Positions 224-37,064 of a DNA stretch of 37,240 nucleotides are shown here, piece after piece (positions within the stretch are counted from its first letter, which is position 1; each line of letters opens with the position of its first letter). Origin of the DNA: Solidesulfovibrio sp. (lineage in GTDB: Bacteria; Desulfobacterota; Desulfovibrionia; Desulfovibrionales; Desulfovibrionaceae); contig NZ_JBCFBA010000032.1 in assembly GCF_038562415.1 (NCBI RefSeq), positions 1 to 37,240 of the forward strand, read 5' to 3'. Both the position numbers and the translations under genes were made by a program. The notes below the pieces were generated by a model. It was given only the letters and a program-made list of their open reading frames with translations. It made no database searches and was not told the DNA's origin.

Positions 224-280
224 GGCAAGGGGTCCGGGGGGGATTATCCCCCCCGGCGGGGTTCGGGGCAGCGCCCCGAT
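224..280 (-). repeat. GC-palindromic intergenic repeat, copy 1 (double hairpin)
   Basis: The core at 234-256 is CCGGGGGGG, spacer ATTAT, CCCCCCCGG. A second hairpin, CGGGGC-AGC-GCCCCG, follows at 264-278. The flank GGTCC left of the core sets the orientation as reverse relative to the copy at 37012. It sits just beyond the 3' end of the acyl-CoA dehydrogenase gene. One of nine copies in the window. Confidence 0.8.
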
Positions 281-288
281 CTTCTCTC

Positions 289-2337
289 CTAAAGCGGGTA
301 ATCGAGCGCTTCCGGGATCATCACTTGCGTGAGCGCCGCTCCGGCCCGTTCGCGGGCGGCGCCGGCGCCGGCGAGCGAGGCGTCCACGGCGGCGCGCAGG
401 CCGGCGAAGGCCGCGAGGTCCGCGCCTTCGGGGGCGTAGCCGTAGACCAGGGTCGCGCAGGCGCGCGCCGCCTCGCCGGCGGCCTTGGCGGCCTGGACCT
501 TGGCCAGGTCGCTGAAAAAGGCCACGTAGCCGGGAAGCCCTTCGGCCACGACCGGGTTTTCCGGGCCCTTGGCCGAAAGCTCCAGCACGTCGAGGATGAA
601 CAGCCGGCTGGCCAGGAGCGGACACAGGGCGTCGGCCAGGGGGAAGGTCACGGCTTGCCGGTTGCCGTGGTAGAGCTTCTTGCCGTCGGCGTCCTTGCCG
701 GCTTCCAGGAAGCGCAGGCTGGCCTGCCACAGCTTGAGGCCGGCGGCCACGGAAGCGGCGCCGGTCTCGGGGTTGGTGGCGGCCACGCGCTCCATCTCCG
801 CGATATAATTGTCGAGGTAGGCGGCGAAGATGTCGCTGGCCATGGTGATGGACAGCTGGCGGCGCTGCACGCACTCGGGGCCTTCGTAGGTGGCTTCGAG
901 CTGGCTGTCGTTCCACTTGTGAAACAGGAATCCGGGGCAGTCCTCGGTGATGCCGTAGCCGCCCATCATGGCCACGGCCTCGCGCATGACCGTGGCGCCA
1001 TGGCCGGTGTTCCAGAGCTTGCAGGCCGGGCACAGCACGCCGGCCTCGGCTTCGAGGGCCTGGTAGACGACCACGGGGTCGGCGCCCAGGGCGTCGAAAC
1101 GGGCGGCGTCGCGGCCGGCTTCGGGGGTGAAAAGCAGATTGACGTATTCGATGGCCTGGGGCTCGACCTTGCGAAGGGCCATGAGCTGGGCGCGCATGCC
1201 CGAGACGCCGGCCGCGGCCAGGGCTTTTTCCTTGCGCTTCTCGGTGGGGTCGAGATGGTCGAACAGGCGCGCCGTGGCGAACCCCAGCGACGCCCCGGCC
1301 TCGCCGGCCGCCCAGACCTCGGCCAGGCGGATGGGCGCGTCCTGCTTCTGCTGCAGGCCCAGTTCGTACTTGGGCGTGCCCTCGGCGCAGGCGTCGCCGC
1401 CCCGGAAGCGGCCGCGCTGGTAGCGGATGACCGGCTCCACGGCGGAGAGCAGCTTGGCCGTGGTCATCAGCGCTACGGGCACGCGGGTGCGGTGGAACAC
1501 GGCGGCGATGATCTCGGAGTGGGTGTAGTTGGGGACGATACAGCCGTCTTTGACCGTGTAGCCGCCGATGATGCGGCTGGCCGGCACCTTCAGGCTGAAG
1601 ACCGGATCGCGGGTGGAGGAAAGCTGGTGCACCATCTTAAGGGTCGGCGCGCCCCGGTCGAAAAGGCCGGGATCGGTTTCTTCGAGGATGACCATGCAGG
1701 AGGACTTGATGCGCGCGTCGGCGGTGTCCACGGCGGCGGTGGCGAAGTTGGCGAAGTCCATGCCGGTGATGAAGCGGCCGCGCTTGTCGACTTGCAGCAT
1801 GGGCTCCTGCCCTTCCTCCCAGGAGTCGATGCGCACCTTGCCGACGAGCACGCCGGTGTCCACGCCGACGTAGGGCAGGGGTTCGGTGAGCGCGAAGGCG
1901 CCGCGCCAGGGCTCCTTGCCCGGGGCCGGGGCGCACAGGCTCATGTAGTGGTCGCGCTGTTCGGTGGTGCCGCGCTCGTGGATGGGGGAAAGGGCCAGGT
2001 TGCTGGCCAGGGAGCAGGTGGCGGCGCCGGCGTCGACCCAGGAAAGTTCGAAGGCGACCAGGGCCAGGGCCATGTTCTTGGGGCCCTCGAGGAAGCCGCC
2101 CTGGTGGGGATCGAGGAAGACGGCGGTGATGCCGGCCTCGTCGAAGGCGGTCAGGAGCTGTTTTTTCTGTTCGGTCCATTCGTGGGAATGGCGCGCGCCC
2201 TCGGCCACCAGACGGGCGACCAGTCCCCGGGCCACGGAACGGGCGGACTGGACAGCCATTTGCAGGTCGAAGCGGTCGGCGAAGCGCCACATGATTTGCC
2301 GGACGTCATCGCCCGGGAGTGTGCGAAGCGTTTCCAT
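289..2337 (-). CDS. Large acyl-CoA dehydrogenase family protein
   Basis: This 682-residue protein is a flavin-dependent acyl-CoA dehydrogenase, expected to introduce the alpha-beta double bond into an acyl-CoA and pass electrons to an electron-transfer flavoprotein. Visible family marks are FALTEP in the N-terminal half, the glycine-rich MMGGYGITEDCPG, and EATYEGPE, whose second Glu (about residue 485) matches the catalytic base in the usual IYEGT motif. It is longer than classic 380-residue enzymes and resembles the large DmdC/FadE-like group with an added C-terminal domain. I start at 2337 rather than an ATG at 2394 because GAGG sits 8 bases upstream of 2337 and conserved sequence begins there. 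The substrate cannot be read from the sequence. It is alone on its strand, with a divergent promoter gap upstream. Confidence 0.88.
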   Translation of the reverse strand: METLRTLPGDDVRQIMWRFADRFDLQMAVQSARSVARGLVARLVAEGARHSHEWTEQKKQLLTAFDEAGITAVFLDPHQGGFLEGPKNMALALVAFELSWVDAGAATCSLASNLALSPIHERGTTEQRDHYMSLCAPAPGKEPWRGAFALTEPLPYVGVDTGVLVGKVRIDSWEEGQEPMLQVDKRGRFITGMDFANFATAAVDTADARIKSSCMVILEETDPGLFDRGAPTLKMVHQLSSTRDPVFSLKVPASRIIGGYTVKDGCIVPNYTHSEIIAAVFHRTRVPVALMTTAKLLSAVEPVIRYQRGRFRGGDACAEGTPKYELGLQQKQDAPIRLAEVWAAGEAGASLGFATARLFDHLDPTEKRKEKALAAAGVSGMRAQLMALRKVEPQAIEYVNLLFTPEAGRDAARFDALGADPVVVYQALEAEAGVLCPACKLWNTGHGATVMREAVAMMGGYGITEDCPGFLFHKWNDSQLEATYEGPECVQRRQLSITMASDIFAAYLDNYIAEMERVAATNPETGAASVAAGLKLWQASLRFLEAGKDADGKKLYHGNRQAVTFPLADALCPLLASRLFILDVLELSAKGPENPVVAEGLPGYVAFFSDLAKVQAAKAAGEAARACATLVYGYAPEGADLAAFAGLRAAVDASLAGAGAARERAGAALTQVMIPEALDYPL

Positions 2338-2393
2338 AGATTTCGCCTCATTCGAGGTTTGGACGCGCCGAGGCGCATGATGAGATGATATCA

Positions 2394-2415
2394 AAAGTAT
2401 GAAAGTATAAAGTAT
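2394..2415 (-). promoter_or_regulatory. Tandem AAAGTAT repeats upstream of acyl-CoA dehydrogenase
   Basis: Three copies of AAAGTAT lie in tandem at 2394-2400, 2402-2408 and 2409-2415, forming an AT-rich island in GC-rich DNA about 60-80 bases upstream of the dehydrogenase start. Read on the minus strand they give ATACTTT repeats, including TATACT, a good -10 match. They probably mark the promoter, perhaps with a repeated operator. No -35 box was assigned. Confidence 0.4.
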
Positions 2416-2456
2416 TCATTCCCGGGCGTCAATTGCCTCCCCCGACGCCGAGCGCC

Positions 2457-2482
2457 GGGCCGCGCCCGGCCGGGCGCGGCCC
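2457..2482. repeat. Perfect 26-base GC palindrome in a divergent promoter gap
   Basis: Bases 2457-2482 equal their own reverse complement (half-site GGGCCGCGCCCGG). The palindrome lies between the divergent acyl-CoA dehydrogenase and DUF342 genes. It could be a cruciform, a dyad operator or chance in GC-rich DNA; nothing ties it to a known regulator. Confidence 0.5.
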
Positions 2483-2586
2483 CGTGACCGAGGCCCGGCC
2501 GGGACTTGTGCAAACCCGGGGGGTTCGATACGAATCCCATCATGGGACATTAACAAGCAGGCAGCCCGATTAACCGGCGAAACCGC

Positions 2587-3699: not shown

Positions 3700-3702
3700 G
3701 CC

Positions 3703-7795: not shown

Positions 7796-7840
7796 CGAGG
7801 GGGTCCGGGGGGCATCATGCCCCCCGGCCGCCGGAGGCAT
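7796..7840 (-). repeat. GC-palindromic intergenic repeat, copy 2
   Basis: The core at 7805-7827 is CCGGGGGG, spacer CATCATG, CCCCCCGG. GGTCC lies to the left and GGCCGCCGGAGGC to the right, which is the reverse orientation. It occupies the gap after the caspase-like peptidase gene. Confidence 0.85.
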
Positions 7841-22261: not shown

Positions 22262-22270
22262 GCAGAGGGA

Positions 22271-22330
22271 AGATGCTCCGGCGGCCAGGAGGGGATGATC
22301 CCCTCCTGGACCTCCCCGACGGGGGGAGGG
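22271..22330 (+). repeat. GC-palindromic intergenic repeat, copy 3
   Basis: The core at 22285-22309 is CCAGGAGGGG, spacer ATGAT, CCCCTCCTGG, preceded by GCTCCGGCGG and followed by a small CCTCCCC/GGGGAGG hairpin. Forward orientation. It lies between the helicase stop and the ABC ATPase start. The stem differs from the CCGGGGGG type, but both arms changed together, so pairing is kept. Confidence 0.85.
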
Positions 22331-22408
22331 GGCGGCGAAAGAGTTTTTCCCGGGCGAAAAGGTGTGGTAGGGGAAGGGCATGCAACCTGAAGCCGGCGGA
22401 GACGTCGC

Positions 22409-23167: not shown

Positions 23168-23171
23168 AGAA

Positions 23172-23270
23172 TTGGGAGGAGCTTCGCCCCTCCCAAACCC
23201 ACCCGACCAGGGCGCCGCCCTGGACCCGCCGGGGGGATAATCCCCCCGGACCCCTTACAGGGGGGAAACT
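23172..23270 (+). repeat. GC-palindromic repeat cluster, copy 4 (three hairpins)
   Basis: Three hairpins in a row directly after the ABC ATPase stop: TTGGGAGG/CCTCCCAA (23172-23196), CCAGGGC-GCC-GCCCTGG (23207-23223), and the standard core CCGGGGGG-ATAAT-CCCCCCGG (23229-23249) followed by GGACCCC. Forward orientation. Within the operon they could act as a processing or partial termination site that lowers expression of the downstream permeases. Confidence 0.8.
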
Positions 23271-23352
23271 GAGCAACCGATCCGCCGACATGCAGGCAAT
23301 GCAAAGAGTAATGACGCCGCCAACCCCATCGCCCTGCCCTCTCCCCCCCCAT

Positions 23353-23430
23353 CCAGGGGGTCCGGGGGGGATGATCCCCCCCGGTGGGGTCCAGGGGCAA
23401 CGCCCCTGGCCGCCGGAGGCACTCTCCGGC
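23353..23430 (-). repeat. GC-palindromic repeat cluster, copy 5, overlapping a permease 5' end
   Basis: The core at 23362-23384 is CCGGGGGGG-ATGAT-CCCCCCCGG, followed by CCAGGGGC-AAC-GCCCCTGG (23391-23409) and GCCGGAG/CTCCGGC (23412-23430). Reverse orientation, head to head with copy 4. The ATG in the core spacer is in frame with permease 1, so the repeat supplies its likely start and first 16-20 codons. Confidence 0.82.
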
Positions 23431-24165: not shown

Positions 24166-24166
24166 C

Positions 24167-24934: not shown

Positions 24935-24976
24935 GCCGGATCGCCGGCCCCGCCACCCGCAGCCAAGGAGACCGCC

Positions 24977-25918: not shown

Positions 25919-26280
25919 CGCCGGCGCGACCGGCCTTATTTTCCCATTTCGGGGAAAGCGTCGCGCGGCCTGTCCGGCGGCGCGCCGCATACGAACGTTG
26001 CGCTGAAAAAACGTTTTGTCATGGACCGTCGCGTCCCCCTTCCGACGAATCGTCGCCACGACGTGCGCTCGACCATAGATACGACGTTTCACCCCCTGCA
26101 CAGCTTGCCAAAAGCGGCGAAACGTCTTTCCCGGCCCATCCGGCAACATACATCCTTCATGCGGGAATAATTTACATTTTCCGAAAGTACGCTCCTTATT
26201 TTATTTTTCGCTTTACGGTGCCCCATTTTGTCACTATGAAAAAACCCCCCTCAAATAGATACCGTTATTCGGAGTAGACC
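25919..26280 (+). other. 362-base regulatory gap before glutamate synthase
   Basis: No gene is seen on either strand. The second half is markedly AT-rich, as expected for a promoter. It holds a 10-base palindrome AAAACGTTTT (26008-26017) and an inverted pair GACGTTTC (26083-26090) / GAAACGTC (26119-26126), all sharing ACGTTT, which may be operator sites. A sigma-70-like promoter is listed separately. No riboswitch fold was recognised. Confidence 0.5.
26212..26240 (+). promoter_or_regulatory. Predicted sigma-70 promoter of the glutamate synthase operon
   Basis: TTTACG (26212-26217), a 17-base spacer and TATGAA (26235-26240) match the -35/-10 pattern at four of six positions each, about 40 bases before the first ATG. 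The leader would be short, with CGGAG as ribosome binding site. Confidence 0.45.
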
Positions 26281-27411
26281 ATGTGCCGCTTATTCGCCCT
26301 CAGCAGCCGGGACCCCGTGTCCCCCATGCGCGCCATCGAGGCGCTCAACGTCATGAAGGAAGGGCACGACGGCTCCGGCGTCGGCCTGTTTCTCCATGAC
26401 CTGGGCGGCCCTTTCGCGGAAACGAAGGACGCGCCGATCCTCTCCGGCATCTTCACCGAGGACGGCCTCAAGCGCCTGGACGCCTTCATGGACGAACGAG
26501 GCTTCGTGACCAAGGCCACCCTGGTGCTCGATCCCCGCACCAAGACCCCGGAGGGCACCCCCATCCGCGGCGTCTACATGGCCCGGGCCTACGAGATCCC
26601 GGCCGACCTCAAGGCCGCCTCCAAGGCCGAGCGCGAGTTGACCTACATGGCCATCCGCGTGGCCCTGCGCCTTACGGGCGAGGAACGCGACGACATCCGC
26701 GTCTTCTCCTTCTGGCCCGACACCATCATGGTCAAGGAAGTCGGCGACCCCCTGACCGTGGCCGAATACCTGGGACTGGACCGGCCCGAGCTTTTCGCCC
26801 GGCGCATCCTGGCCCAGGGCCGCCAGAACACCAACTACGCCATCAATCTCTACGCCTGCCATCCGTTTTTCCTGCAAGGCGTGTGCACCATGACCAACGG
26901 CGAGAACACGGCCTTCATTCCCATCAAGGAATACCTGCTCTCGCGCGGGTTCGCCGGCTACATGGGCTACCAGTCCGATTCCGAGGTCTTCGCCCACATC
27001 ATGCATTTCACCTTGAGTCGCCTGGGCCTTGGCATCGAATACTACAAGCACGTCATCACGCCGCTTTCCGACACCGAGATGGAAGGCCATCCCGACCGGG
27101 CGCTGCTCGGGCGCATCAAGCAGACCTGCCGCAAGCTCATCATCGACGGCCCCAACTGCGTCATCGGCTGCCTGCCCGAGGGCACCATGTTCATGGTCCA
27201 GGACCGCAAGAAGCTGCGGCCGGGCGTGGTCGGCGGCCATGACGGCATCTTCGCCTTCTCCTCGGAAATCTGCGGCCTGGACGCGGCCATACCCGACCGC
27301 GACCCCCGCGCCGACGTGCAACCCATGCACCTGGACACGGCCATCGTGCGCCCCGAATGCCAAGAGGTCACCTTATGCAATCAACTGCAGTCATTACCCC
27401 GTCCACACTAA
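26281..27411 (+). CDS. Glutamate synthase glutaminase subunit (class II amidotransferase, GltB1-like)
   Basis: A 376-residue class II glutamine amidotransferase domain, the part of glutamate synthase that releases ammonia from glutamine. Met1 is followed by Cys2, the N-terminal nucleophile after Met removal. Family marks include DGSGVGLFLHD, LAQGRQNTNYAINLYACHPF, CTMTNGENTAF, GYQSDSEVF and PEGTMFMVQDRKKLRPG. In most bacteria this domain is the N-terminus of one 1,500-residue GltB; here it is a separate gene, as in archaea and some deltaproteobacteria. The stop overlaps the next gene by 37 bases, implying coupled translation and equal amounts. Confidence is high for the domain and its role in the operon. 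Confidence 0.92.
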   Translation: MCRLFALSSRDPVSPMRAIEALNVMKEGHDGSGVGLFLHDLGGPFAETKDAPILSGIFTEDGLKRLDAFMDERGFVTKATLVLDPRTKTPEGTPIRGVYMARAYEIPADLKAASKAERELTYMAIRVALRLTGEERDDIRVFSFWPDTIMVKEVGDPLTVAEYLGLDRPELFARRILAQGRQNTNYAINLYACHPFFLQGVCTMTNGENTAFIPIKEYLLSRGFAGYMGYQSDSEVFAHIMHFTLSRLGLGIEYYKHVITPLSDTEMEGHPDRALLGRIKQTCRKLIIDGPNCVIGCLPEGTMFMVQDRKKLRPGVVGGHDGIFAFSSEICGLDAAIPDRDPRADVQPMHLDTAIVRPECQEVTLCNQLQSLPRPH

Positions 27412-29009
27412 GCGTCGTCGATCTCCCCTGGCAGGTCGAGTGGAACAAGGACACCTGCACCCTGTGCGGGCGCTGCACCTCCGTGTGCCCGGTGAGTGCC
27501 ATCGAGCTCGGGGTCTTCCGCAAGCGTAGCGTCGAGGCGACCATCGCCCTGCAGAAAAAGCCGACCAACAGCTACTCGATCTACTACGGCATCCGCCAGC
27601 GCACCGACCCGGCCTACCGCTGCATCGGCTGCGGCATGTGCAACATGGTCTGCCCCAATAACGCCATCGCCCCCAGGCTGCGCCCGGAAGCCACCACGCT
27701 CAAGTTCCACAACAACCGCGGCGGCGCGGCCCGTACCCGTGGCGGGCGGCGCAACGATACCGGCAGCCTGCTCGACCAGATCAAGTTCATCCGCATTTCC
27801 ATGCTCACCGACCCGGCCCTGGACGCCGGGCGCCACGAGTTCGAGCTGCGCACGCTTTTAGGCCGCGTGCTGCCCCCCGAGGACGGCCTGGCCGCCCTGG
27901 CCGACAACGCCTGGGTGCCGGCGGTGCGCGAGATCTATCCGCTGATGATCGGCTCCATGTCCTTTGGCGCGCTTTCCCCCAACATGTGGGAAGGCCTGGT
28001 CATGGGCGTGTCCTACTTGAACGAGGAACTGGGCATGCCGGTGCGCATGTGCACGGGCGAGGGCGGCTGTCCGCCCAGGCTCCTGCGCTCGCGCTTCCTC
28101 AAGTACATGGTGCTGCAGATCGCCTCGGGCTATTTCGGCTGGGACGAGATCATCAAGGCCCTGCCCGATATGAAGGAAGACCCCTGCGCCATCGAGATCA
28201 AGTACGGCCAGGGGGCCAAGCCCGGCGACGGCGGGCTCCTCATGTGGTACAAGGTCAACAAGCTCATCGCCGCCATCCGCGGCGTGCCCCAGGGCGTGTC
28301 CCTGCCGAGCCCGCCCACCCACCAGACCCAGTACTCCATCGAGGAGTCCGTGGCCAAGATGATCCAGTCCATGTCCATGGCCTGGGGATTCCGCGTGCCG
28401 GTCTACCCGAAGATCTCCGGCACCACGACCTCCACGGCCGTGCTCAACAACCTCGTGCGCAACCCCTACGCGGCCGGCCTGGCCATCGACGGCGAGGACG
28501 GCGGCACCGGGGCGGCCTACAACGTGTCCATGAACCACATGGGCCATCCCATCGCCACCAACCTGCGCGACTGCTACGAGAACCTGTGCATCGCCGGCAA
28601 GCAGAACGAGATTCCGCTCATTGCCGGCGGCGGCATCGGCAAGAACGGCAACCTGGCCGCCAACGCCGCCGCCCTGATCATGCTCGGGGCCAGCGCCGTG
28701 CAGTCCGGCAAATACATCATGCAGGCCGCGGCCGGCTGCCTCGGTTCGGAGCACGACCGCTGCAACGTCTGCAACATCGGCGTGTGCCCCAAGGGCATCA
28801 CCTCCCAGGATCCGCGCCTCTACCGCCGCCTGGACCCCGAACTCGTGGCCGAACGCCTGGTGGACGTGTTTTTGTCCTTCGATACGGAGCTGCGCAAGAT
28901 CGTCGCGCCGCTGGGTCGCTCCACGTCGCTGCCCGTCGGCATGTCCGACGCCCTGGGCATCGGCGACTACCACGCGGCAAACCGCCTCAAGATCAAGTAC
29001 GTGGTCTAG
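27375..29009 (+). CDS. gltB: Glutamate synthase central/FMN domain with N-terminal ferredoxin motifs (GltB2-like)
   Basis: A 544-residue protein that converts 2-oxoglutarate and ammonia to glutamate. The N-terminus has two 4Fe-4S motifs, CTLCGRCTSVCP and CIGCGMCNMVCP, an extra electron-entry module absent from standard GltB. The barrel follows with PLMIGSMSFGALS, GEGGCPPRLL, IEIKYGQGAKPGDGG, the FMN-binding DGEDGGTGAA, and the 3Fe-4S loop CNVCNIGVCPKGI near the end. The start at 27375 (MQSTAV) has AAGAGGT at good distance and lies inside the upstream gene. The next subunit begins 40 bases downstream. The arrangement is the archaeal type of split glutamate synthase. Confidence 0.93.
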   Translation: MQSTAVITPSTLSVVDLPWQVEWNKDTCTLCGRCTSVCPVSAIELGVFRKRSVEATIALQKKPTNSYSIYYGIRQRTDPAYRCIGCGMCNMVCPNNAIAPRLRPEATTLKFHNNRGGAARTRGGRRNDTGSLLDQIKFIRISMLTDPALDAGRHEFELRTLLGRVLPPEDGLAALADNAWVPAVREIYPLMIGSMSFGALSPNMWEGLVMGVSYLNEELGMPVRMCTGEGGCPPRLLRSRFLKYMVLQIASGYFGWDEIIKALPDMKEDPCAIEIKYGQGAKPGDGGLLMWYKVNKLIAAIRGVPQGVSLPSPPTHQTQYSIEESVAKMIQSMSMAWGFRVPVYPKISGTTTSTAVLNNLVRNPYAAGLAIDGEDGGTGAAYNVSMNHMGHPIATNLRDCYENLCIAGKQNEIPLIAGGGIGKNGNLAANAAALIMLGASAVQSGKYIMQAAAGCLGSEHDRCNVCNIGVCPKGITSQDPRLYRRLDPELVAERLVDVFLSFDTELRKIVAPLGRSTSLPVGMSDALGIGDYHAANRLKIKYVV

Positions 29010-29049
29010 GGCAACGACATCCACCGCACAAGCCAAGGCAGCAACCGAC

Positions 29050-31380
29050 ATGGAACAGCAATCCGTCACCATACACGGTTTTGAAAACGGCCACCGGGTC
29101 CAGTCCCGCATCCTGGAGGAACGCATCCAGCGGGCCGTGACCCAGGGCGCGCGCGCCCTGACCGTCGAGGCCTACGGCCAGCACGGCATCGGCGGCCGGC
29201 TTTTCCTCTCGCGAAAGGAACCCGTCACCGTGCGCATCACCGGTTCGCCCGGCCAGCGCACCGGCTCCATGGGCTTTCCCGGCACGAAAATCATCATCGA
29301 GGCCCCGACCTCCGACGACATCGGCTGGCTCAACGCCGGGGCCGAGATCGTCGTGCTCGGCAACGCCGGCAACGGCGCGGCCAACGCCATGGCCCAGGGC
29401 AAGGTCCTGGTCAGCGGCAACATCGGCGCGCGCGGCATGACCATGACCAAGCGCAACCCCAAGTACGACGCCCCGGAAATGTGGGTGCTGGGGTCGGTGG
29501 GCGACTACTTCGCCGAGTTCATGGCCGGCGGCACGGCCGTGGTCTGCGGCTTCGAGCCGCAAAACCCGGACAACGTGCTCGGCTACCGACCCTGCGTCGG
29601 CATGGTCGGCGGCCGCATCTTCTTCCGGGGGCCCCACAAGGGCTTCTCCCTGGCCGACGCCAAGCTCGAACCCATCGACGACGCGGCCTTCGCCTGGCTC
29701 ACCGACAACCTGCGCACCTACCTCGCCGCCATCGGCCGGCCGGAACTGTACGACACCCTGGCCGTGCGCGACGACTGGCAGTGCATCCTGGCCCGCAGCC
29801 CCTACGAGAAGACCGGCAAGAAGCGCCGGGCCATGCGCGAATTCCGCGCCGGTGTCTGGGACGCCGAGCTCGGCCGGGGCGGGCTCATCGGCGACCTCGA
29901 CGACAGCGACCGCTCGCCCATCGGGCTCATCGTCAATGGCGAGCTGCGCCGCTTCGTGCCGGTCTGGGAAAACAAGAAATACCTCTCGCCCTGCCAGGCC
30001 AGCTGCCCCACCGGCATCCCGGTGCAGCAGCGCTGGCAGCTCGTGCGCGACGGGCTCATGGACGAGGCCATGGACCTGGCCCTGGCCTACACGCCCTTCC
30101 CGGCCACGGTCTGCGGCTACCTCTGCCCCAACCTGTGCATGCAGGGCTGCACGCGCTCGGTGGGCAACCTGATGCCGCTGGACACGGCCCTGCTCGGCAA
30201 GGCCAATGCCAAGGCCGGCCGCATGCCCGCCCTGCCGCCCCTGTCGGGCAAGCGCGTGGCCGTCATCGGCGGCGGCCCGGCCGGCATGTCCATCGCCTGG
30301 CAGTTGCGCCTGGCCGGCCACGAGGCCGTGATCTACGACCTCGGGGACAAACTCGGCGGCAAGATCGCCGCCGCCATCCCCGCCACCCGCATTCCCAAGG
30401 ACGTCCTGGACGCCGAAATCGCGCGCGCCCAGGAGATCCTGCCCCATATCCAGCTCAAGGAAGCCCTGGGCAAGGACGCCTTCGCCCAGCTCGTGACCGA
30501 CTACGACTTCACGGTCCTGGCCGTCGGCGCCAACAAGCCGCGCCTGCTGCCCGTGCCCGGCAAGGAGCTGGCCCAGCCGGCCCTGACCTTCCTCAAGGCG
30601 GCCAAGAAGGGCACGGCCACGGTCGGCAAGCGGGTGGTCATCATCGGCGCCGGCAACGTCGGCTGCGACGTGGCCACGGAAGCGGCCCGCCTGGGCGCCG
30701 CATCCATCACGCTCATCGACATCCAGACGCCGGCCTCCTTCGGCAAGGAGCGCAAGGATGCCGAGGCCGTGGGCGCCCTCTTCAAGTGGCCCTGCTTCAC
30801 CAAGGAGATCACGGCCGAGGGCGTGACGCTCCAGTCGGGTGAGCTCCTTCCCGCCGACACGGTCATCCTGTCCGTGGGTGACGTGCCGGACCTGGAGTTT
30901 CTGGACGACACCATCGCCACGGAGCGCGGCCATGTGAAGGTCAGCGACATCTATCAGACCACGAACCCCAAAGTGTTCGCCATCGGCGACATCGTCAAAC
31001 CGGGTTTGCTGACCCAGGCCATCGGCATGGGCCGCGACGCGGCGAAAGCCATCATCGACATCTTCGCCGGCAAGCGTCCCTGCGAGGACACCCGCAAGAT
31101 GATCGACTACCGCCGGGCCAAGCTCGAATACTTCGACCCGCGCATCATGGAATTCAACGACTTGAACTCCTGCGCCAGCCAGTGTTCGTCCTGCGGCGCC
31201 TGCCGCGACTGCGGGCTTTGCGAGACGATCTGCCCCACCGGGGCGATTTCGCGCCAGGCCAAGGACGGTAAGGAGTTCGAGATGGTGTCCGACCCGGCCA
31301 AATGCATCGGCTGCGGCTTTTGCGCCAACGCCTGCCCCTGCGGCGTCTGGAGCCTGGTGGAGAACGCGCCGCTGGTATAG
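29050..31380 (+). CDS. Fusion of GltB3 (GXGXG) domain, NADPH-dependent glutamate synthase small subunit and ferredoxin
   Basis: A 776-residue three-part protein. Residues about 1-245 are the GXGXG beta-helix domain (GNAGNGAANAMAQGKVLVSGN, GARGMTMTKRN). About 310-690 form the GltA/GltD-like dehydrogenase: Fe-S cluster Cys in CQASCPTGIP and CGYLCPNLCMQGC, an FAD motif VAVIGGGPAGMS, an NAD(P) motif VVIIGAGNVGCD, and a second FAD motif FAIGDIVKPG. The C-terminus has two 4Fe-4S motifs (CSSCGACRDCGLCETICP and CIGCGFCANACPCG). It should take electrons from NAD(P)H or ferredoxin and pass them to the FMN subunit. GXGXG and GltA are usually separate chains. Together with the two upstream genes it completes the enzyme. 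Confidence 0.92.
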   Translation: MEQQSVTIHGFENGHRVQSRILEERIQRAVTQGARALTVEAYGQHGIGGRLFLSRKEPVTVRITGSPGQRTGSMGFPGTKIIIEAPTSDDIGWLNAGAEIVVLGNAGNGAANAMAQGKVLVSGNIGARGMTMTKRNPKYDAPEMWVLGSVGDYFAEFMAGGTAVVCGFEPQNPDNVLGYRPCVGMVGGRIFFRGPHKGFSLADAKLEPIDDAAFAWLTDNLRTYLAAIGRPELYDTLAVRDDWQCILARSPYEKTGKKRRAMREFRAGVWDAELGRGGLIGDLDDSDRSPIGLIVNGELRRFVPVWENKKYLSPCQASCPTGIPVQQRWQLVRDGLMDEAMDLALAYTPFPATVCGYLCPNLCMQGCTRSVGNLMPLDTALLGKANAKAGRMPALPPLSGKRVAVIGGGPAGMSIAWQLRLAGHEAVIYDLGDKLGGKIAAAIPATRIPKDVLDAEIARAQEILPHIQLKEALGKDAFAQLVTDYDFTVLAVGANKPRLLPVPGKELAQPALTFLKAAKKGTATVGKRVVIIGAGNVGCDVATEAARLGAASITLIDIQTPASFGKERKDAEAVGALFKWPCFTKEITAEGVTLQSGELLPADTVILSVGDVPDLEFLDDTIATERGHVKVSDIYQTTNPKVFAIGDIVKPGLLTQAIGMGRDAAKAIIDIFAGKRPCEDTRKMIDYRRAKLEYFDPRIMEFNDLNSCASQCSSCGACRDCGLCETICPTGAISRQAKDGKEFEMVSDPAKCIGCGFCANACPCGVWSLVENAPLV

Positions 31381-31395
31381 TGTGTTTGTGGGGGA

Positions 31396-31440
31396 CGCCT
31401 TCGGCGACCAGGAGGGGCTCGCCCCTCCTGGTCCTCCCAT
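31396..31440 (+). repeat. GC-palindromic intergenic repeat, copy 6
   Basis: The core is a 12-base perfect stem, ACCAGGAGGGGC (31407-31418) with GCCCCTCCTGGT (31421-31432), and a two-base loop. GCCTTCGGCG precedes it. Forward orientation. It follows the glutamate synthase operon stop closely and could stabilise or end that transcript. A second copy in the same orientation lies beyond the next gene. Confidence 0.82.
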
Positions 31441-31453
31441 AAATAAATACGCA

Positions 31454-32098
31454 ATGCCCGCCGTTGCATCACGAGCCCTCCGCAGGAAACAAGCGGTCCA
31501 CGCCTGCCGCCGAGCCCTGTGTTGGACGTTTGGCATTCTGATCGCTTATTTCACGTACCAATACAACAGCTTTACGATTTTTGCTTATTTGCCGACCGGG
31601 GGCGATATCCTTCTGCCCTTGACCCTCACATTCCTTATCCTCGCCACGCTGCTCTATGTCATTTACATCGCCATCCGCTATCTGAAAACTCCATATGCCC
31701 AGGCATTCCATCCACTGATTCTGTATTGTTCGGCCTACATCCTCTTCAACCCGGCGCAAGCCTTTGATCACGACCGCCATTCCGCATGCGCACGTTTCCA
31801 GAAACAACGGGAACAATTTGTGCATTCCTTTTGCGCAGGCGAAATACCTCTGCAAGCGGTGTATCCCAAAGTGTATGTTCCGCCAAAAGCTCTGCGCTAT
31901 ACGGCAGGTCTCTCGCACAATGTCTCCATCGACTGCCAGGACGACAGAATCATCGCCGCCTTTCCCCTTTGGGGCTATCTCGACCATAGCGAAGAACTGA
32001 TGTACCGCTCAGATGGTTCCCTTCCCGAGCCGCAATCACAAAGCGGCATTCAGGACTACGACAAAATAAAACAGAACTGGTACTATGTTGTTTATTAG
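31454..32098 (+). CDS. Hypothetical membrane protein of lower GC content
   Basis: A 214-residue protein I do not recognise. It has at least two strong membrane helices (about residues 22-43, ending in Tyr/Phe-rich sequence, and 50-75, ILLPLTLTFLILATLLYVIYIAIRYL) and possibly a third near 85-100. A soluble C-terminal part rich in Tyr, His and Gln follows (GLSHNVSIDCQDDRIIAAFPLWGYL, ending KQNWYYVVY). Base composition is visibly less GC-rich than all neighbours, and codons ending in A or T are common, suggesting recent acquisition. No good ribosome binding site precedes the ATG; an in-frame GTG at 31382 would read through the repeat. It is bracketed by repeat copies 6 and 7. Confidence 0.6.
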   Translation: MPAVASRALRRKQAVHACRRALCWTFGILIAYFTYQYNSFTIFAYLPTGGDILLPLTLTFLILATLLYVIYIAIRYLKTPYAQAFHPLILYCSAYILFNPAQAFDHDRHSACARFQKQREQFVHSFCAGEIPLQAVYPKVYVPPKALRYTAGLSHNVSIDCQDDRIIAAFPLWGYLDHSEELMYRSDGSLPEPQSQSGIQDYDKIKQNWYYVVY

Positions 32099-32139
32099 AA
32101 AACACTTTGCCGCAACAATGGCGCAAGGTCGACGGGCAC

Positions 32140-32186
32140 ACCCTCGGCGACCGAAAAAGTCGCGCCCCTCCTGGACCTCCCCCAAG
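32140..32186 (+). repeat. Degenerate GC repeat, copy 7
   Basis: The right half (GCGCCCCTCCTGGACCTCCCCC) and the left flank CCTCGGCGACC match the family, but the left stem arm is replaced by GAAAAAGTC, so the hairpin is broken. Forward orientation, the same as copy 6, about 700 bases away on the other side of the low-GC gene. Confidence 0.65.
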
Positions 32187-32232
32187 GGAAAAACAAACCG
32201 GGCCGTCTCGTTGGAGGCGGCCCGGTTTGTTT
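32186..32232 (-). terminator. Intrinsic terminator of the DsrE-like gene
   Basis: A 15-bp perfect stem (32191-32205 with 32218-32232) with a 12-base loop lies 18 bases beyond the minus-strand stop. Read on the minus strand it ends in GTTTGTTTTTCCC, giving the U-rich tail of a Rho-independent terminator. It could also stop plus-strand transcripts from the low-GC gene, with a weaker tail. Confidence 0.75.
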
Positions 32233-32250
32233 CATCAATACGGCAGGCTG

Positions 32251-32607
32251 TTAAAACGAAAAGACTTTGGCCTCTGCGGCGATGTCGATCATGTCCGGGG
32301 CGGTGCTGATCGCGAAGTTTGGCGGCAGGTCGTCCCCACTGATGAGCCGGGCCTCGGCGCAGGGCTTGCACACCAGAATCCGCACGCCCTTTTCCTGCAA
32401 GGCCCGGATCTGGTCGATCAAGGCGTCGCCGGTGGGAATGCGCACCTTCTCGGCCATGCTCAAGTTGCTCCAATACACCGCGTCGTCGAGCAGAAACACC
32501 GTGACCTCATGCCCCTTGTTGGCCGCGACCTTGGCCAGGAAAAAAGCCCGCACCGCCCGGACCGGATCCTCCGGGCCACGGGACAAGGCAAACAGAAATT
32601 TCGCCAT
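32251..32607 (-). CDS. DsrE-family small protein
   Basis: A 118-residue cytoplasmic protein with the DsrE/DsrF/TusD-like fold: MAKFLFALSRGPEDPVRAVRA at the start, HEVTVFLLDDAVYW in the second strand, and CKPCAEARLI, where the Cys pair lies near the position of the active Cys in sulfur-relay members. Such proteins move sulfur or bind small ligands, and sulfate reducers carry several. I start at 32607, with GAGGGGAG four bases upstream; in-frame codons further up have no support. It has its own terminator downstream and lies 116 bases from the beta-lactamase stop, so it may be separately transcribed. Confidence 0.82.
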   Translation of the reverse strand: MAKFLFALSRGPEDPVRAVRAFFLAKVAANKGHEVTVFLLDDAVYWSNLSMAEKVRIPTGDALIDQIRALQEKGVRILVCKPCAEARLISGDDLPPNFAISTAPDMIDIAAEAKVFSF

Positions 32608-32723
32608 CACTCCCCTCGTTCTCGTCTGGGTTGAGGACATTGTCGACCGCAACACAATGCAAACGACCGGCATGGAGGCAGCATAACGCGCAAACGCCGG
32701 CGATGGAAAGTCGCAACCCGCCT

Positions 32724-33620
32724 CTACTGCGACCCGTTCCACCCGGCCAGGACCAGCCGCGTCGCCGCCGCCAGCACCTCCCGCCGGGCCGGCGCGTTGC
32801 GTTGCGGCTGCGTGAAATAGACGGCCAGCACCAGCGGTGAACCTTGCGGCGGCCACAGGACGGCCACGTCGTTGGTCGTGCCGAAATCACCGCTGCCGGT
32901 CTTGTCGCCGACCGTCCAGCCCGGCGGCACCCCGGCCCGAATGCTGGCCCCACCCGTGGTGTTGCCCCGAAGCCAAGCCACGAGCAGGTCGCGCTTTTCG
33001 GGGGGGAGCGCGTCACCGAGCGTCAGGCGCGCCACCGTGCGGGCCATGGCCTCGGGTGTGGTGGTATCGCGGGGGTCGCCGGGAATGGCGCTGTTGAGTT
33101 CCGGCTCGATGCGGTCGAGGCGGAAGGTGGCGTCGCCCAGACGGCGGGCAAAGGCCGTCAGCGCACCGGGGCCGCCAAGCTCGGCCAAGAGCAGATTGGC
33201 GGCCGTGTTGTCGCTGGCCTGGATGGCGGTGGCGCACAGCCCGGCCACGTCCATGCCCTGGCCCAAGTGCTCCCTGGTGACCGGCGCCCAGGCGAGCAGG
33301 TCGCGCGCGCCGTAGGCGACGTGTCTGGCGAGCAGCCCCGGCTCGTCCCGGCTCTTGTCCAGGACGGCCGCCGCCAGCACCAGCTTGAACGTGCTGCACA
33401 GCGCAAAGCGCTCGCTACCCCGGTAGGCGAAGCCACGGCCGGTGGCCGGGTCGAGGACGGCCAGGCCGAGCCGCCCCCCGGCCCCGCGTTCCAGGGCCGC
33501 CAGCCGGGACCGCAACACCCTGTCGCCCCTCTGCCCGGCCCAGGCCGCCCCGGCCAGGCCGCACGCGACCACGGCCAGCAGCATCGGCAACAACCACCGC
33601 CACAACACCCGATACCGCAT
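32724..33620 (-). CDS. bla: Class A beta-lactamase (CTX-M/DES-like)
   Basis: A 298-residue exported serine beta-lactamase. The N-terminus is a signal peptide (cut about AWA-GQ; VVAC could instead act as a weak lipobox). All class A motifs are intact: CSTFK (Ser76, Lys79), SDN (136-138), the omega-loop EPELN with Glu172 and Asn176, and KTGSGDFGTTND (Lys240). The stretches IPGDPRDTTTP, GNTTGGASIRAG and YFTQPQRNA closely resemble CTX-M enzymes, and a Ser follows KTG as in that extended-spectrum group. DES-1 of Desulfovibrio desulfuricans is a known relative. The start at 33620 has GAGGGA upstream. It lies in an ordinary chromosomal setting with no mobile gene beside it. Confidence 0.93.
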   Translation of the reverse strand: MRYRVLWRWLLPMLLAVVACGLAGAAWAGQRGDRVLRSRLAALERGAGGRLGLAVLDPATGRGFAYRGSERFALCSTFKLVLAAAVLDKSRDEPGLLARHVAYGARDLLAWAPVTREHLGQGMDVAGLCATAIQASDNTAANLLLAELGGPGALTAFARRLGDATFRLDRIEPELNSAIPGDPRDTTTPEAMARTVARLTLGDALPPEKRDLLVAWLRGNTTGGASIRAGVPPGWTVGDKTGSGDFGTTNDVAVLWPPQGSPLVLAVYFTQPQRNAPARREVLAAATRLVLAGWNGSQ

Positions 33621-33669
33621 AGGTTCCCTCGCTGGGAAAGGCCGCAGTGCGGCCTGGTCGCCAACCCCC

Positions 33670-33720
33670 TGCGGGGAGGTCCAGGAGGGGGTCACCCCCT
33701 CCTGGCCGCCGGAGGCATCC
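33670..33720 (-). repeat. GC-palindromic intergenic repeat, copy 8
   Basis: The core at 33681-33705 is CCAGGAGGGGG-TCA-CCCCCTCCTGG, preceded by GGGGAGGT and followed by CCGCCGGAGGCATCC. Reverse orientation. It fills the gap between the phosphorylase stop and the beta-lactamase start, so it lies in or just upstream of the lactamase leader. Confidence 0.85.
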
Positions 33721-33732
33721 CACCCGGCCACC

Positions 33733-36303
33733 CTACGCCGCGGCCCAGCGGATGAGCCCCAACGAATGGGAGTCGAGCAGCAGCGGATGGTGGGGCAGGA
33801 TGCGCACCGTGAAGCCGAACCGGCCGGCCTCGGCGGGCTGGACCTCGCCCACGTAGACCGTCCAGCCGTCCTCCATGTTTTCCACCGGCCGCATGTTGAC
33901 CGTGTCGCGCTGGGCGAACTTGCCTTCGTAATCCAGCCGGCCGGCGTAGATCTGCACTTCCACGTCCTGGGGGCGGATGCCGTTTAAATGGACCTCGGCC
34001 CGTATCCGGATGGGGTCGCCCACGTGGACCTGCTCCGGCTCGTCCGAGCGGATGTTGCGGACATTGAGGTTGCCCCACTTGGTCATCATATCCATGCGCC
34101 AGGAAGCCAGATCCTTGGCCGCGACGCAATCGTCGCGGGTGAGCCGGTTGTAGTTCTCCAGAGCCGGCACGTAGGCGATGCGGGCATAGTCCTCCACCAT
34201 GCGGTGGGAGTTGTACAGGGGCGCCAGCTCGGCGATGGAATCCTTCATCTTGCGGATCCAGTTGCGCGGCAGGCTGCCGTGGTGGCCCCGGTCGTAGAAG
34301 GTCGGAATGATCTCGTTTTCGAGGATGTTGTAGAGGGTCTGGCTCTCCACGAAGTCCTGGTAGCCGCCGTCCTCGTACTCCTCGCCCTGGCCGATGGCCC
34401 AGCCCACGCTGTTGTCGGGCTTCCAGGCCTCGGCCCACCAGCCGTCCAGGGTGCTGTAGTTGAGCACGCCGTTGCACATGGCCTTCATGCCGCTGGTGCC
34501 GCAGGCCTCCAGCGGCCGCCGGGGCGTATTGAGCCAGACATCCACGCCCTGGACCAGGTAGCTGGCGATCTCCATGTCGTAGTCTTCCAGGAAGACCATG
34601 TTGAAGCGGCACTGCTGGCTGTTGCACATCTGGACCAGCTCCTGGATGATCCGCTTGCCCTCGTTGTCGTGGGGATGGGCCTTGCCGGCGAAGACGAACT
34701 GCACCGGATGGCCGGTGTCGCCCAGGATTTTGATCAGGCGCTCCCGGTCGGAAAGGAGCAGGTTGGCCCGCTTGTAGGTGGCGAAACGCCGGGCGAAACC
34801 GATGGTCAGCGTCTGGGGATCGAGGACTTCCTCGGCGGCTTGCAGTTCCTTGCGCTTGGCGCCCCGGGCCAGGAGCTGTTCCCGAAGGCGTTCGCGCACG
34901 AAGCCCACCAGCCGCTCGCGCAGCCGCTCGTGGGTGCGCCACAGCTCGGCGTCGGAAATGAGGTGCGTCTGGGCGAACACCCGGCCCGTATCCGGGTCCT
35001 CCCGCCAGTTGGCCCCGAAGTAGCGGTCATAGAGCGCGGCCATGTCCTGGGACACCCAGGTCGGCACGTGCACGCCGTTGGTGATGGCGCCGATGGGCAC
35101 GTCCTCCACCGGGTACTGGTTCCAGACCCGGTTCCACATCCCGCGCGAGACCACGCCGTGAAGCTTGGACACGCCGTTGTTGAAGCGCGAGAGCTTGAGC
35201 GCCAAAACCGGCATGCAGAAATGCTCGGAATCGTTGCGCGGGTCTTCCCGGCCCAGGGCCAGCAGGACCTTGAAGGCCAGGCCCAGGCGCTTGGCGTAGT
35301 CCTCGAAATAGGCCTGGATGAGGTCCGGCGGGAAACGGTCGTTGCCGGCCGGCACCGGGGTGTGGGTGGTGAAGATGGAGCTCGAGGCCACGAGTTCCAT
35401 GGCCGCCTCGAAGGACAGCTTGTGCTTGTCCATGAAGTTGGCGATGCGCTCCAGGCCGGCGAAGGCCGAATGGCCCTCGTTCATGTGGATGACCTTGGGC
35501 TTGAGCGAGAGCGCCTCCAGGGCGCGGATGCCGCCGATGCCGAGCAGGTATTCCTGGCGCACCCGGGTTTCCAGGTCGCCGCCGTAGAGGCGGTTGGTCA
35601 ACTGGCGCGAGGCGGGCTGATTTTCGGCCACGTTGGTGTCCAGGAGGTACAGGGACACCCGGCCCACCTGCGCCTTCCAGATCTGGGCATGGACGCGCTC
35701 GCCGCGCAGGTCGACGTAGATGAGGATGTGCTCGCCCGCGGCGTCGCGGCACAGCGACAGCGGCATCTGCTCGAAGTCGTAGATGGGGTAGCGCTCCTGC
35801 TGCCAGCCGTCGGCCGTGAGGTACTGGCGGAAATAGCCCTGCTGGTAGCACAGCCCGATGCCGACCAGGGGCACGCACAGGTCGCTGGCCGATTTGAGGT
35901 GGTCGCCGGCCAGGATGCCCAGGCCCCCGGAATAGATGGGCAGGCAGGCGCTGATGCCGTATTCCAGGCTGAAATAGGCCACCACGGGCTGGCCGTCGCG
36001 GTCGGGGAAGGGGATGGAGGTGGTTTTGCGGGACAGATAGGTCTGGAGCGTCTGGCGCAGGTCGTTCACCCGCTCCACGAAAAACTCGTCGTCGGCCAGG
36101 CTCTCCAGCGTCTTTTGCGGCAACCGGTTCAGGAAACCCACGGGGTTGCCCGCGCAATCCCGCCACAATTTGCGGTCGACCTGGGCGAAAAGCGAGGCAA
36201 TGTCGTCGTTCCACGAAAAAAGCAGGTTGTAGGCCAGATCCCAGAGCGAATGGAGTTTGGCCGGCAATTTCGGCACCACGCTGTAGACGCGTAACGGCTG
36301 CAT
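33733..36303 (-). CDS. glgP: Alpha-glucan (glycogen) phosphorylase
   Basis: An 856-residue enzyme that splits alpha-1,4 glucan with phosphate to give glucose-1-phosphate. It belongs to the Thermotoga/archaeal-type short phosphorylases rather than the E. coli type: YFSLEYGISACLPIYSGGLGILAGDHLKSASDLC near 110-140, HMNEGHSAF, THTPVPAGNDRF, FARRFATYKRANLL and GTSGMKAMCNG, with the pyridoxal-phosphate Lys at about 607. The start at 36303 (MQPLRVYSVV) has AAGGGG upstream; the ATG at 36432 adds unrelated sequence. No glycogen synthase or branching enzyme gene is within the window. The beta-lactamase gene follows after a repeat. Confidence 0.93.
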   Translation of the reverse strand: MQPLRVYSVVPKLPAKLHSLWDLAYNLLFSWNDDIASLFAQVDRKLWRDCAGNPVGFLNRLPQKTLESLADDEFFVERVNDLRQTLQTYLSRKTTSIPFPDRDGQPVVAYFSLEYGISACLPIYSGGLGILAGDHLKSASDLCVPLVGIGLCYQQGYFRQYLTADGWQQERYPIYDFEQMPLSLCRDAAGEHILIYVDLRGERVHAQIWKAQVGRVSLYLLDTNVAENQPASRQLTNRLYGGDLETRVRQEYLLGIGGIRALEALSLKPKVIHMNEGHSAFAGLERIANFMDKHKLSFEAAMELVASSSIFTTHTPVPAGNDRFPPDLIQAYFEDYAKRLGLAFKVLLALGREDPRNDSEHFCMPVLALKLSRFNNGVSKLHGVVSRGMWNRVWNQYPVEDVPIGAITNGVHVPTWVSQDMAALYDRYFGANWREDPDTGRVFAQTHLISDAELWRTHERLRERLVGFVRERLREQLLARGAKRKELQAAEEVLDPQTLTIGFARRFATYKRANLLLSDRERLIKILGDTGHPVQFVFAGKAHPHDNEGKRIIQELVQMCNSQQCRFNMVFLEDYDMEIASYLVQGVDVWLNTPRRPLEACGTSGMKAMCNGVLNYSTLDGWWAEAWKPDNSVGWAIGQGEEYEDGGYQDFVESQTLYNILENEIIPTFYDRGHHGSLPRNWIRKMKDSIAELAPLYNSHRMVEDYARIAYVPALENYNRLTRDDCVAAKDLASWRMDMMTKWGNLNVRNIRSDEPEQVHVGDPIRIRAEVHLNGIRPQDVEVQIYAGRLDYEGKFAQRDTVNMRPVENMEDGWTVYVGEVQPAEAGRFGFTVRILPHHPLLLDSHSLGLIRWAAA

Positions 36304-36468
36304 AGCTTCCCCTTTTATCGGCCACGCCGTCACGACGCGAAACGCCGCGCAGTCCGTGCCTTCCTGGCATCTATCCACAAGCCCCCGCAAATGGCAAGAC
36401 CGGCCCCGAAACGTCACGACCATGACACCCAAGTGAGAACTTCCGCGATTTCAGCATGTTAAATCTTG

Positions 36469-36496
36469 TTTACAAAATCAACGGATACGGTAGGTT
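36469..36496 (+). promoter_or_regulatory. Possible promoter of dut
   Basis: TTTACA, a 16-base spacer and TAGGTT lie in a short AT-rich patch about 34 bases upstream of the dUTPase ATG. The -35 match is good and the -10 weak. The 226-base gap also holds the phosphorylase promoter, which I could not place. Confidence 0.3.
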
Positions 36497-36529
36497 AACC
36501 CCCCTATCGCCACCCCGGAGGTATTGCCC

Positions 36530-36994
36530 ATGACCGCGCCGACCAGCATCCTACGCCTCAAGTTCCTCCGGGAATCGAGCCGCGACAACCCGCCCACGGT
36601 CGCCACCCCCGGCTCGGCCGGCCTGGACCTGCGCGCCGACATCGAGGCCGAGACGCTTACCATCGCCCCCGGGGCGCGCGCCGCCGTGCCGACCGGCATC
36701 GCCATCGAGATCGAAACACCCGGCCTGGCCGGCTTCGTCTATTCCCGCTCGGGCCTGGGGGCCAAGCACGGCCTGACCGTGGCCCAGGGCGTGGGCGTCA
36801 TCGACCCGGACTACCGGGGCGAAATCATCGTCTGGCTGCTCAACACGTCCACCGAGCCCAAGACCATCGCCCGCCACGAACGCATCGCCCAGCTCATCCT
36901 GGCCCCCATCGCGCGCCCCATCGTCACGCCCGTGGACGACCTCGGCGACACCCACCGCGGCGACGGCGGCTTCGGGCATAGCGGCAGGGTGTAG
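36530..36994 (+). CDS. dut: Deoxyuridine triphosphate nucleotidohydrolase (dUTPase)
   Basis: A 154-residue trimeric dUTPase that hydrolyses dUTP to dUMP and pyrophosphate, keeping uracil out of DNA and supplying dUMP for thymidylate. All five motifs are visible: GSAGLDLRAD, SRSGLGAKHG, GVGVIDPDYRGEI (with the catalytic Asp), RIAQLILAP and RGDGGFGHSGRV, which corresponds to the usual RGxGGFGSTG C-terminal arm. GGAGGT precedes the ATG at 36530 by eight bases, so I prefer it to the TTG at 36524. It stands alone, followed by repeat DNA. Confidence 0.95.
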   Translation: MTAPTSILRLKFLRESSRDNPPTVATPGSAGLDLRADIEAETLTIAPGARAAVPTGIAIEIETPGLAGFVYSRSGLGAKHGLTVAQGVGVIDPDYRGEIIVWLLNTSTEPKTIARHERIAQLILAPIARPIVTPVDDLGDTHRGDGGFGHSGRV

Positions 36995-37011
36995 AGTAAG
37001 AAGAAGAGGAA

Positions 37012-37064
37012 GATGCCTCCGGCGGCCGGGGGGCATGATGCCCCCCGGACCCCCCCAAAGGGGG
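37012..37064 (+). repeat. GC-palindromic intergenic repeat, copy 9
   Basis: GATGCCTCCGGCGG precedes the core at 37026-37048 (CCGGGGGG-CATGATG-CCCCCCGG), and ACCCCCCCAAAGGGGG follows. This copy shows the fullest form of the family and defines forward orientation. It lies about 20 bases beyond the dUTPase stop. Confidence 0.88.

What the first reader, a model, noticed from the sequence alone, without database searches (positions are those of the whole stretch)
224..37064. Nine-copy GC-palindromic repeat family with paired changes in the stem
Copies at 224, 7796, 22271, 23172, 23353, 31396, 32140, 33670 and 37012 share a core of G-run, usually an ATNAT spacer, and C-run, with asymmetric flanks (GCCTCCGGCGGCC on one side, GGACCYCCCC on the other). 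There are two stem types, CCGGGGGG and CCAGGAGGGG; in each copy both arms match, so changes are compensatory and the folded form appears to be under selection. They sit only between genes or at gene edges. This resembles REP/RAYT-type elements or small MITEs, with mobilising enzyme and function unknown.
Basis: seen in the sequence. Interest (0 to 1): 0.72.

Follow-up and report, generated by a model that had tools for sequence, protein, structure and literature searches.

The report
Gene-end repeats encoding a DNA triple helix
A sulfate-reducing bacterium and its relatives carry many short repeats beside genes, mostly just past gene ends, whose sequence pattern fits a hairpin with a matching third strand (a DNA triple helix), and this unit is often swapped for other versions while its place stays the same.

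Summary
The repeat family is real and genome-wide: 181 exact copies of a 13-nt flank against 5 of the reversed pattern, and hits in all 14 genomes searched of the genus (Solidesulfovibrio). Matched stem arms are confirmed (99.1% of cells paired, 7 of 10 pairs with double changes), though window copy 32140 has a broken stem. Arm A faces tail T or A, as G.G-C, A.A-T and T.A-T triplets of a purine-motif (class I) intrastrand DNA triplex would give. Elements are oriented: the flank faces a stop codon in 32 of 41, and none of 41 lies between divergent genes. Some orthologous sites keep an element while stem plus tail is replaced as a block. A REP-associated transposase as mover is not supported. 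The kind is known (PIT/BoxC/TM elements, PMC4666352); this class I, gene-end family looks like a new variant. Best mechanism: a structural DNA barrier beside genes whose cassettes spread by copying at stalled forks. The fold rests on sequence statistics; the function is inferred.

The parts
224..256 (-). Copy 224: hairpin 234-256 with mirror G-run (third strand) 229-232; no 13-mer flank; next to another hairpin 257-276
7796..7838 (-). Copy 7796: third-strand G-run 7799-7803, hairpin 7805-7827, 13-mer 7826-7838 (stem type CCGGGGGGCA)
22274..22317 (+). Copy 22271: altered flank 22274-22286, hairpin 22285-22309 (CCAGGAGGGGA), tail 22310-22317; class I triplex motif found by scan on the - strand
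23172..23257 (+). Composite of three hairpin modules 23172-23196, 23207-23223, 23229-23249 with tails; no 13-mer
23353..23420 (-). Composite: third strand 23356-23360 with hairpin 23362-23384, third strand 23386-23389 with hairpin 23391-23409, 13-mer 23408-23420
31396..31438 (+). Copy 31396: flank variant GCCTTCGGCGACC 31397-31409, hairpin 31406-31433; class I motif on the - strand
32134..32181 (+). Broken copy: flank variant and left arm damaged, right arm and tail kept
   Evidence: (D18)
33672..33716 (-). Copy 33670: third strand GGGGAGG 33673-33679, hairpin 33681-33705, 13-mer 33704-33716
37015..37056 (+). Copy 37012: 13-mer 37015-37027, hairpin 37026-37048, tail from 37049; follows the gene call 36530-36994
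70..138 (-). Second, longer hairpin family (AT-rich apex) that also shows a mirror G-tract
   Evidence: (I1)
37118..37186 (+). Second, longer hairpin family, other copy in the window
   Evidence: (I1)

Best explanation
It is a lineage-specific family of potential intrastrand-triplex DNA repeats. Reading away from the nearest gene an element has a purine-rich leader, the constant 13-mer GCCTCCGGCGGCC, a hairpin (purine arm R, short loop, pyrimidine arm Y), GG, then a tail that is the mirror of Y. On the opposite strand this reads R'-TCC-R-loop-Y, the layout of a class I purine-motif triplex in which R' folds back antiparallel onto R. SHOWN by sequence statistics: the hairpin, the arm-to-tail rule, the orientation beside genes (mostly stop codons), and block replacement of stem plus tail at kept sites. 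INFERRED: when the strand is single or underwound it folds into this structure and is a barrier to polymerases just past a gene end, limiting run-through between neighbours; replication forks that stall there copy the cassette of another element through the shared 13-mer (template switching or conversion), so that sites persist while cassettes are exchanged.
For: Arm-tail rule: with one tail per distinct arm (40 arms) arm A faces A/T in 37 of 45 and arm G faces C in 203 of 216, 0.920 in all against 0.742 and 0.625 when slid by one and at most 0.762 in 5000 shuffles; the 12 distinct arms from three other genera alone give 0.948 against 0.684. T and A are both used opposite arm A (23 and 14 of 45), which the purine motif allows and the pyrimidine motif does not. 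A triplex scan found 46 class I and 8 class II motifs in 813,814 own bases, none in first-order Markov surrogates. Orientation: the flank faces a stop in 32 of 41 elements, 0 of 41 lie between divergent genes though 78 of 322 gaps are divergent. Cassette swap: the same first six arm letters in 31 of 38 same-site pairs within clades but 15 of 155 between clades, 114 of 953 for other sites and clades, 28 of 111 for other sites of the same genome. In the literature related motifs fold as triplexes in vitro and block DNA polymerase in vitro (PMC4666352 passages).
Against: No folding or activity was measured here. The E. coli relatives showed no promoter or terminator activity, and in vivo footprinting did not support a stable triplex (PMC4666352 passages). 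8 of 45 arm-A and 13 of 216 arm-G cells break the rule; arm C cells follow none. 9 of 41 elements face a start codon, not a stop. Related copies share ancestry, so arms are not fully independent; by my reading of the list about 12 arm patterns differ in where their A residues stand. The longer hairpin family gave no signal in a rigid register. Presence at orthologous sites ranges from 12 of 13 to 0 of 8 relatives.
Confidence: 0.5

Rival explanations
1. RNA-level 3'-end element: the mRNA hairpin just past the stop codon ends transcription or blocks 3'-5' decay, without a U-tract; leader, flank and tail bind proteins or pair in RNA.
For: Flank 6-71 nt past the stop in 31 of 32 stop-facing copies, none between divergent genes; relatives without the element often show a U-tract hairpin terminator at that place.
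Against: No U-tract follows the hairpin. At L010:10969 own, G002, G011 and G013 keep a terminator-like hairpin further downstream. Purine-motif triplexes are said not to form in RNA (PMC4666352 passage), and the sense-strand pyrimidine motif does not explain tail A opposite arm A (14 of 45). 9 of 41 copies face starts.
Confidence: 0.27
2. REP-like mobile element moved by a single-strand transposase (RAYT or other) that reads hairpin and foot.
For: Hundreds of copies, palindromic, intergenic, often inverted pairs; apparent gain between stop and old terminator at L010:10969 in the own clade.
Against: No RAYT over cut-off in 23 copy-rich genomes; G012, a one-contig genome with 121 flanks, had no candidate at all in that search; no GTAG/CGTC tag; kept sites across species with changed cassettes.
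Confidence: 0.1
3. Protein-binding DNA site (for example for a topoisomerase or nucleoid protein) whose symmetry makes the mirror tail.
For: Constant 13-mer and placement past gene ends, as known for some REP sites that bind gyrase (recalled).
Against: The arm and tail letters vary widely while their relation is kept, unlike a fixed binding site.
Confidence: 0.08
4. G-quadruplex element.
For: One type reads GGGAGGGTCCGGGAGGGG on one strand.
Against: Types such as AGAGAGGGGC, AGGAAGGGGC and AAAGGGGC keep the mirror rule without regular G-runs; a quadruplex needs no complementary Y arm.
Confidence: 0.05

Closest known systems
PIT / BoxC / TM_ECO intrastrand triplex motifs (PMC4666352: outline and abstract, results sections 14-16 and passages read; the earlier Hoyne and Maher papers only through it)
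   Same: Three G/C-rich segments on one strand, hairpin plus reverse-Hoogsteen third strand with GGC, AAT and TAT triads, short loops, many intergenic copies, sometimes in inverted pairs
   Different: TM_ECO is class II (Y-R-RH) with one near-fixed sequence and lies more often upstream of ORFs; this family is class I (RH-R-Y), has dozens of stem versions, a constant 13-mer on the Y side, and faces stop codons. Desulfovibrio is not in that paper's main text
REP / BIME / REPIN elements with RAYT (PMC3733652: abstract and section 5 read)
   Same: Short palindromic intergenic repeats with complementary stem variants, singles and inverted dimers
   Different: No GTAG or CGTC tag, no RAYT in step with copy number, a mirror third segment
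Intrinsic terminators
   Same: G/C-rich hairpin shortly past a stop codon
   Different: No U-tract, constant unpaired flank, mirror tail

Membership tests
Potential intrastrand triplex (PIT/TM) elements | Three stretches on one strand able to form GGC/AAT/TAT triads over at least 6-7 triplets with short loops | tested here: met
   46 class I motifs of at least 6 triplets in 813,814 own bases, 0 in surrogates; arm-tail rule over 40 arms. Not every element passes the scan
Potential intrastrand triplex (PIT/TM) elements | Physical triplex folding in vitro | not testable with these tools
   No tool here computes or measures triplexes; folds hairpins only
TM_ECO subfamily | Class II order and the pattern CCCTCNCCC...GGGNGAGGG...GGGNGAGGG (PMC4666352) | tested here: not met
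   Order is class I and the letters differ
REP (GTAG/CGTC superfamilies) | Unpaired GTAG or CGTC tag at one end of the hairpin | tested here: not met
   43-copy alignment shows GCCTCCGGCGG and ACCNCCCC flanks
REP (GTAG/CGTC superfamilies) | RAYT gene flanked by the repeats | tested here: not met
   No RAYT match in own genome, none over cut-off in 23 copy-rich genomes; CGTC REPs are themselves said to lack a dedicated transposase (PMC3733652 abstract)
MITE | Terminal inverted repeats matching a transposase-bearing element, target duplication | not tested
   Only one apparent gain site was read by eye, flanks too diverged
Intrinsic terminator | U-tract right after the hairpin | tested here: not met
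   Tails are C-rich; in 20001-37240 the scan lists 23172-23196, on the - strand, but none of the other core hairpins of the family
Rfam families | Match over gathering score | tested here: not met
   0 matches in the window; other loci not searched

The most novel reading that the evidence does not exclude
A genome-wide class of gene-end DNA elements whose three-strand fold is kept by evolution: natural covariation between a Watson-Crick stem and a reverse-Hoogsteen third strand across several genera, working as an oriented structural barrier to polymerases, with cassettes exchanged among fixed sites by copying at stalled forks.
Probability: 0.33. Interest if true: 0.85.

Novelty: new variant of a known kind. 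Interest (0 to 1): 0.62.

Why it matters
Whether intrastrand DNA triplexes do anything in living bacteria is open: the E. coli motif folds in vitro, but in vivo footprinting did not support a stable triplex and no terminator activity was seen (PMC4666352 passages). A family with many copies per genome, dozens of stem versions that keep a triplet rule, a fixed gene orientation and fast cassette exchange gives comparative evidence that a near-invariant motif cannot give, and makes the question testable with oligonucleotides, Term-seq and polymerase-arrest assays.

Tried and rejected
RAYT as mover: not supported for this family. A downstream G-run as partner of the tail: no clear covariation (4.80 of 7 against 4.64, sd 0.11). 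Antiparallel arm-tail pairing: 0.726 against 0.875 parallel. Known RNA family: none over threshold in the window. Plasmids and phages (one 71-nt copy each) and viral contigs (one exact pattern): no match. One array hairpin pattern was found in 2 of 198 genomes of the phylum (one stem type only, so this says little of other types). The longer hairpin family gave no signal in a rigid register (0.553 against 0.549); with a free linker it did (0.917 against 0.846, 0 of 5000 shuffles), after I dropped 4 of 28 rows: three unrelated hairpins and one member of the first family. Literature searches listed no description of this family that I recognised; only open-licence papers are held, I looked into two papers, and most listed ones were seen as titles and abstract starts. 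In one search two of eleven sites were unusable: 23391 was anchored at a wrong place and 7805 had no orthologue among the fetched loci. One search was a script error, repaired.
Full report
What is there. The window is a whole contig (G000:C32) of a 5.07-Mb genome. In element orientation a copy reads GCCTCCGGCGG-CC-R-loop-Y-GG-A-tail, where R is a purine-rich arm and Y its reverse complement. Eight of the nine window sites hold an intact hairpin; 32140 is a broken copy. The sites 23172 and 23353 are composites of several hairpin modules.

Genome-wide. The 13-mer GCCTCCGGCGGCC occurs 181 times in the genome against 5 for the reversed pattern, 117 to 363 times in the eight genomes of the genus in that draw (own included), patchily in other genera of the family, and 0 to 4 times per genome in the other families of the order (150 genomes). 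In Solidesulfovibrio stretches 115 of 122 exact 13-mers with at least 60 nt to follow have a stem; of the seven others one lies in a gene call and the rest look decayed or masked. In three other genera 27 of 60 have one (13 of 20 in g10, 3 of 17 in g8, 11 of 23 in g9); the others there mostly look like genes or another repeat.

Paired changes. On the 43-copy alignment 99.1% of cells pair and 7 of 10 pairs show changes on both sides. That alignment was selected for good stems. Paired changes in stems can also come from template switching (PMC8794818, seen only as a listing with the start of its abstract), so they do not by themselves prove selection.

The third strand. Listing arm against tail showed that the tail spells the parallel complement of R: AGGAGGGG with ACCTCCCC, GGGAGGGGA with ACCCTCCCC, AGAGAGGGGC with ACTCTCCC, AGGAAGGGGC with ACCATCCC, AAAGGGGC with AAACCCC, AGGGGAGGC with ACCCCTCC. 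With one tail per distinct arm (40 arms) and a fixed register, arm A faces tail A or T in 37 of 45 cells and arm G faces C in 203 of 216; 0.920 overall, 0.742 and 0.625 when slid by one, at most 0.762 in 5000 shuffles. An earlier test with a freer register gave the same answer for 74 distinct arm-tail combinations and for 12 arms of other genera alone (0.948 against 0.684). Seen from the other strand the element is R'-TCC-R-loop-Y with R' the mirror of R, the class I intrastrand triplex layout described in PMC4666352. The use of both A and T opposite arm A fits the antiparallel purine motif and not the pyrimidine motif. Arm C positions follow no rule. The arms are related by descent; reading the list I count about 12 patterns of A positions, most with a matching tail. 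A scan found 46 class I and 8 class II motifs of at least 6 triplets in 813,814 own bases and none in first-order Markov surrogates, a weak null; 6 and 2 of these were in the 400,000 bases picked by position. The longer hairpin family at 70-138 and 37118-37186 follows the mirror rule only when the linker is left free.

Placement. With my own gene caller 47 own elements divide into 32 whose flank faces a stop codon, 9 facing a start codon, 5 at stretch edges and 1 inside a gene call; 0 of 41 lie between divergent genes although 78 of 322 gaps of 60 nt or more are divergent, which by my arithmetic has a chance near 1 in 100,000 if copies fell on gaps at random. The flank lies 6 to 71 nt past the stop in 31 of 32; the other copy overlaps a gene call. 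Stretches picked by position held few elements (6 own, 4 in relatives): 5 facing stops, 3 facing starts, 1 inside a gene call, 1 at an edge, so the ratio rests mainly on stretches picked for hits, not for context. The start-facing ones lie before genes that look real from their protein sequence (no family search run). The leader before the flank is purine-rich, 0.80 (47 copies) against 0.48 after 605 other stops.

Orthologous sites. Nine own element sites could be compared with 5 to 13 relatives each, plus the site after 36994. Presence varies: 12 of 13 relatives at L010:9715 (one, G001, doubtful), 10 of 12 at L014:4900, 6 of 7 at 22276, 6 of 12 at L014:9678, 3 of 5 at L010:8453, 3 of 9 at 33681, 2 of 13 at L010:10969, 2 of 12 at 31396, 0 of 8 at L014:9834; a few of the misses are decayed, variant or cut by a contig end. 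Where an element is kept, stem and tail differ as a block: at L010:9715 the arms include GGGGGGCA, GGGGGGG, GGGAGGGGG, AGGGGGAAACTTTT, GGGGGCC, AAAGGG and AAAGGGC, most with a matching tail. Among perfect stems the first six arm letters agree in 31 of 38 same-site pairs within clades, 15 of 155 between clades, 114 of 953 for different sites and clades, and 28 of 111 for different sites of one genome. I set the clades by eye before the tree; a one-gene tree agrees (G007 not in it), and by coding identity the sharing is 10 of 13 at 92% or more, 19 of 28 at 88-92%, 17 of 152 below. So some sites outlive their cassettes, and the cassettes of one genome resemble each other more than those of different sites and clades do: concerted replacement. 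Where relatives lack the element, a U-tract hairpin terminator often stands at that place; at L010:10969 own, G002, G011 and G013 have the element (decayed in G002) between the stop and a similar hairpin.

Mover. One Y1 transposase gene was found in the own genome; the hairpin beside it has no other copy closer than 3 mismatches, and I read the protein as IS200-like from memory. None of 23 genomes with 40 or more flanks has a RAYT over the cut-off (3 have weak matches), while the 14 genomes over the cut-off have 0 to 8 flanks; G147 with 38 flanks has five matches below the cut-off. No hits in plasmids, phages or viral contigs for the few queries used.

Reading. What is shown is a sequence rule, an orientation and an evolutionary pattern. 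That the strand folds into a triplex, that it stalls polymerases, and that stalling drives cassette exchange are inferences; they are supported by the in vitro behaviour of the E. coli relatives as told in PMC4666352 and weakened by the negative in vivo results told there. Contig ends cluster at the elements: 11 of 150 model hits lie within 400 nt of a contig start (about 0.6 expected by my arithmetic), and 6 of the 11 contigs whose length I know end within about 250 nt of a hit. This may reflect sequencing failure at the structures but has other possible causes.

Noticed in passing
window 31391-32181: Two damaged element copies 743 bp apart flank a gene call (31589-32098) with low third-position G+C; most relatives show one element-like sequence or a terminator-like hairpin there, as if cargo had entered at an element.
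   Followed up: partly
window 70-138 and 37118-37186: A second, longer hairpin repeat with AT-rich apex and a TTTTT-purine lead, also before the next gene in many relatives.
   Followed up: partly
own-genome contig ends; L009, L019, G013 (L059): Contig ends cluster at elements, and long G or N runs stand in gaps with elements (L009, L019) or at one element (L059): the structures may stop sequencing polymerases.
   Followed up: partly
window 26220-26280: About 60 nt right before the gene call at 26281 are nearly the same in the relatives aligned, while the rest of the gap is diverged; a regulatory leader or short peptide is possible.
   Followed up: no
L012:4411, L017:8719, L030:5446 and other start-facing copies: In 9 of 41 elements the reversed flank, which contains GGAGG, stands before a start codon (5-38 nt in 8 of 9) and might serve as a ribosome-binding site.
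   Followed up: partly
L219, L220, L226, L227, L230, L237, L239: Genomes of g9 carry a different repeat beginning GCCTCCGGCGGCCAAGGACGGCAGCC after the same 13-mer.
   Followed up: no
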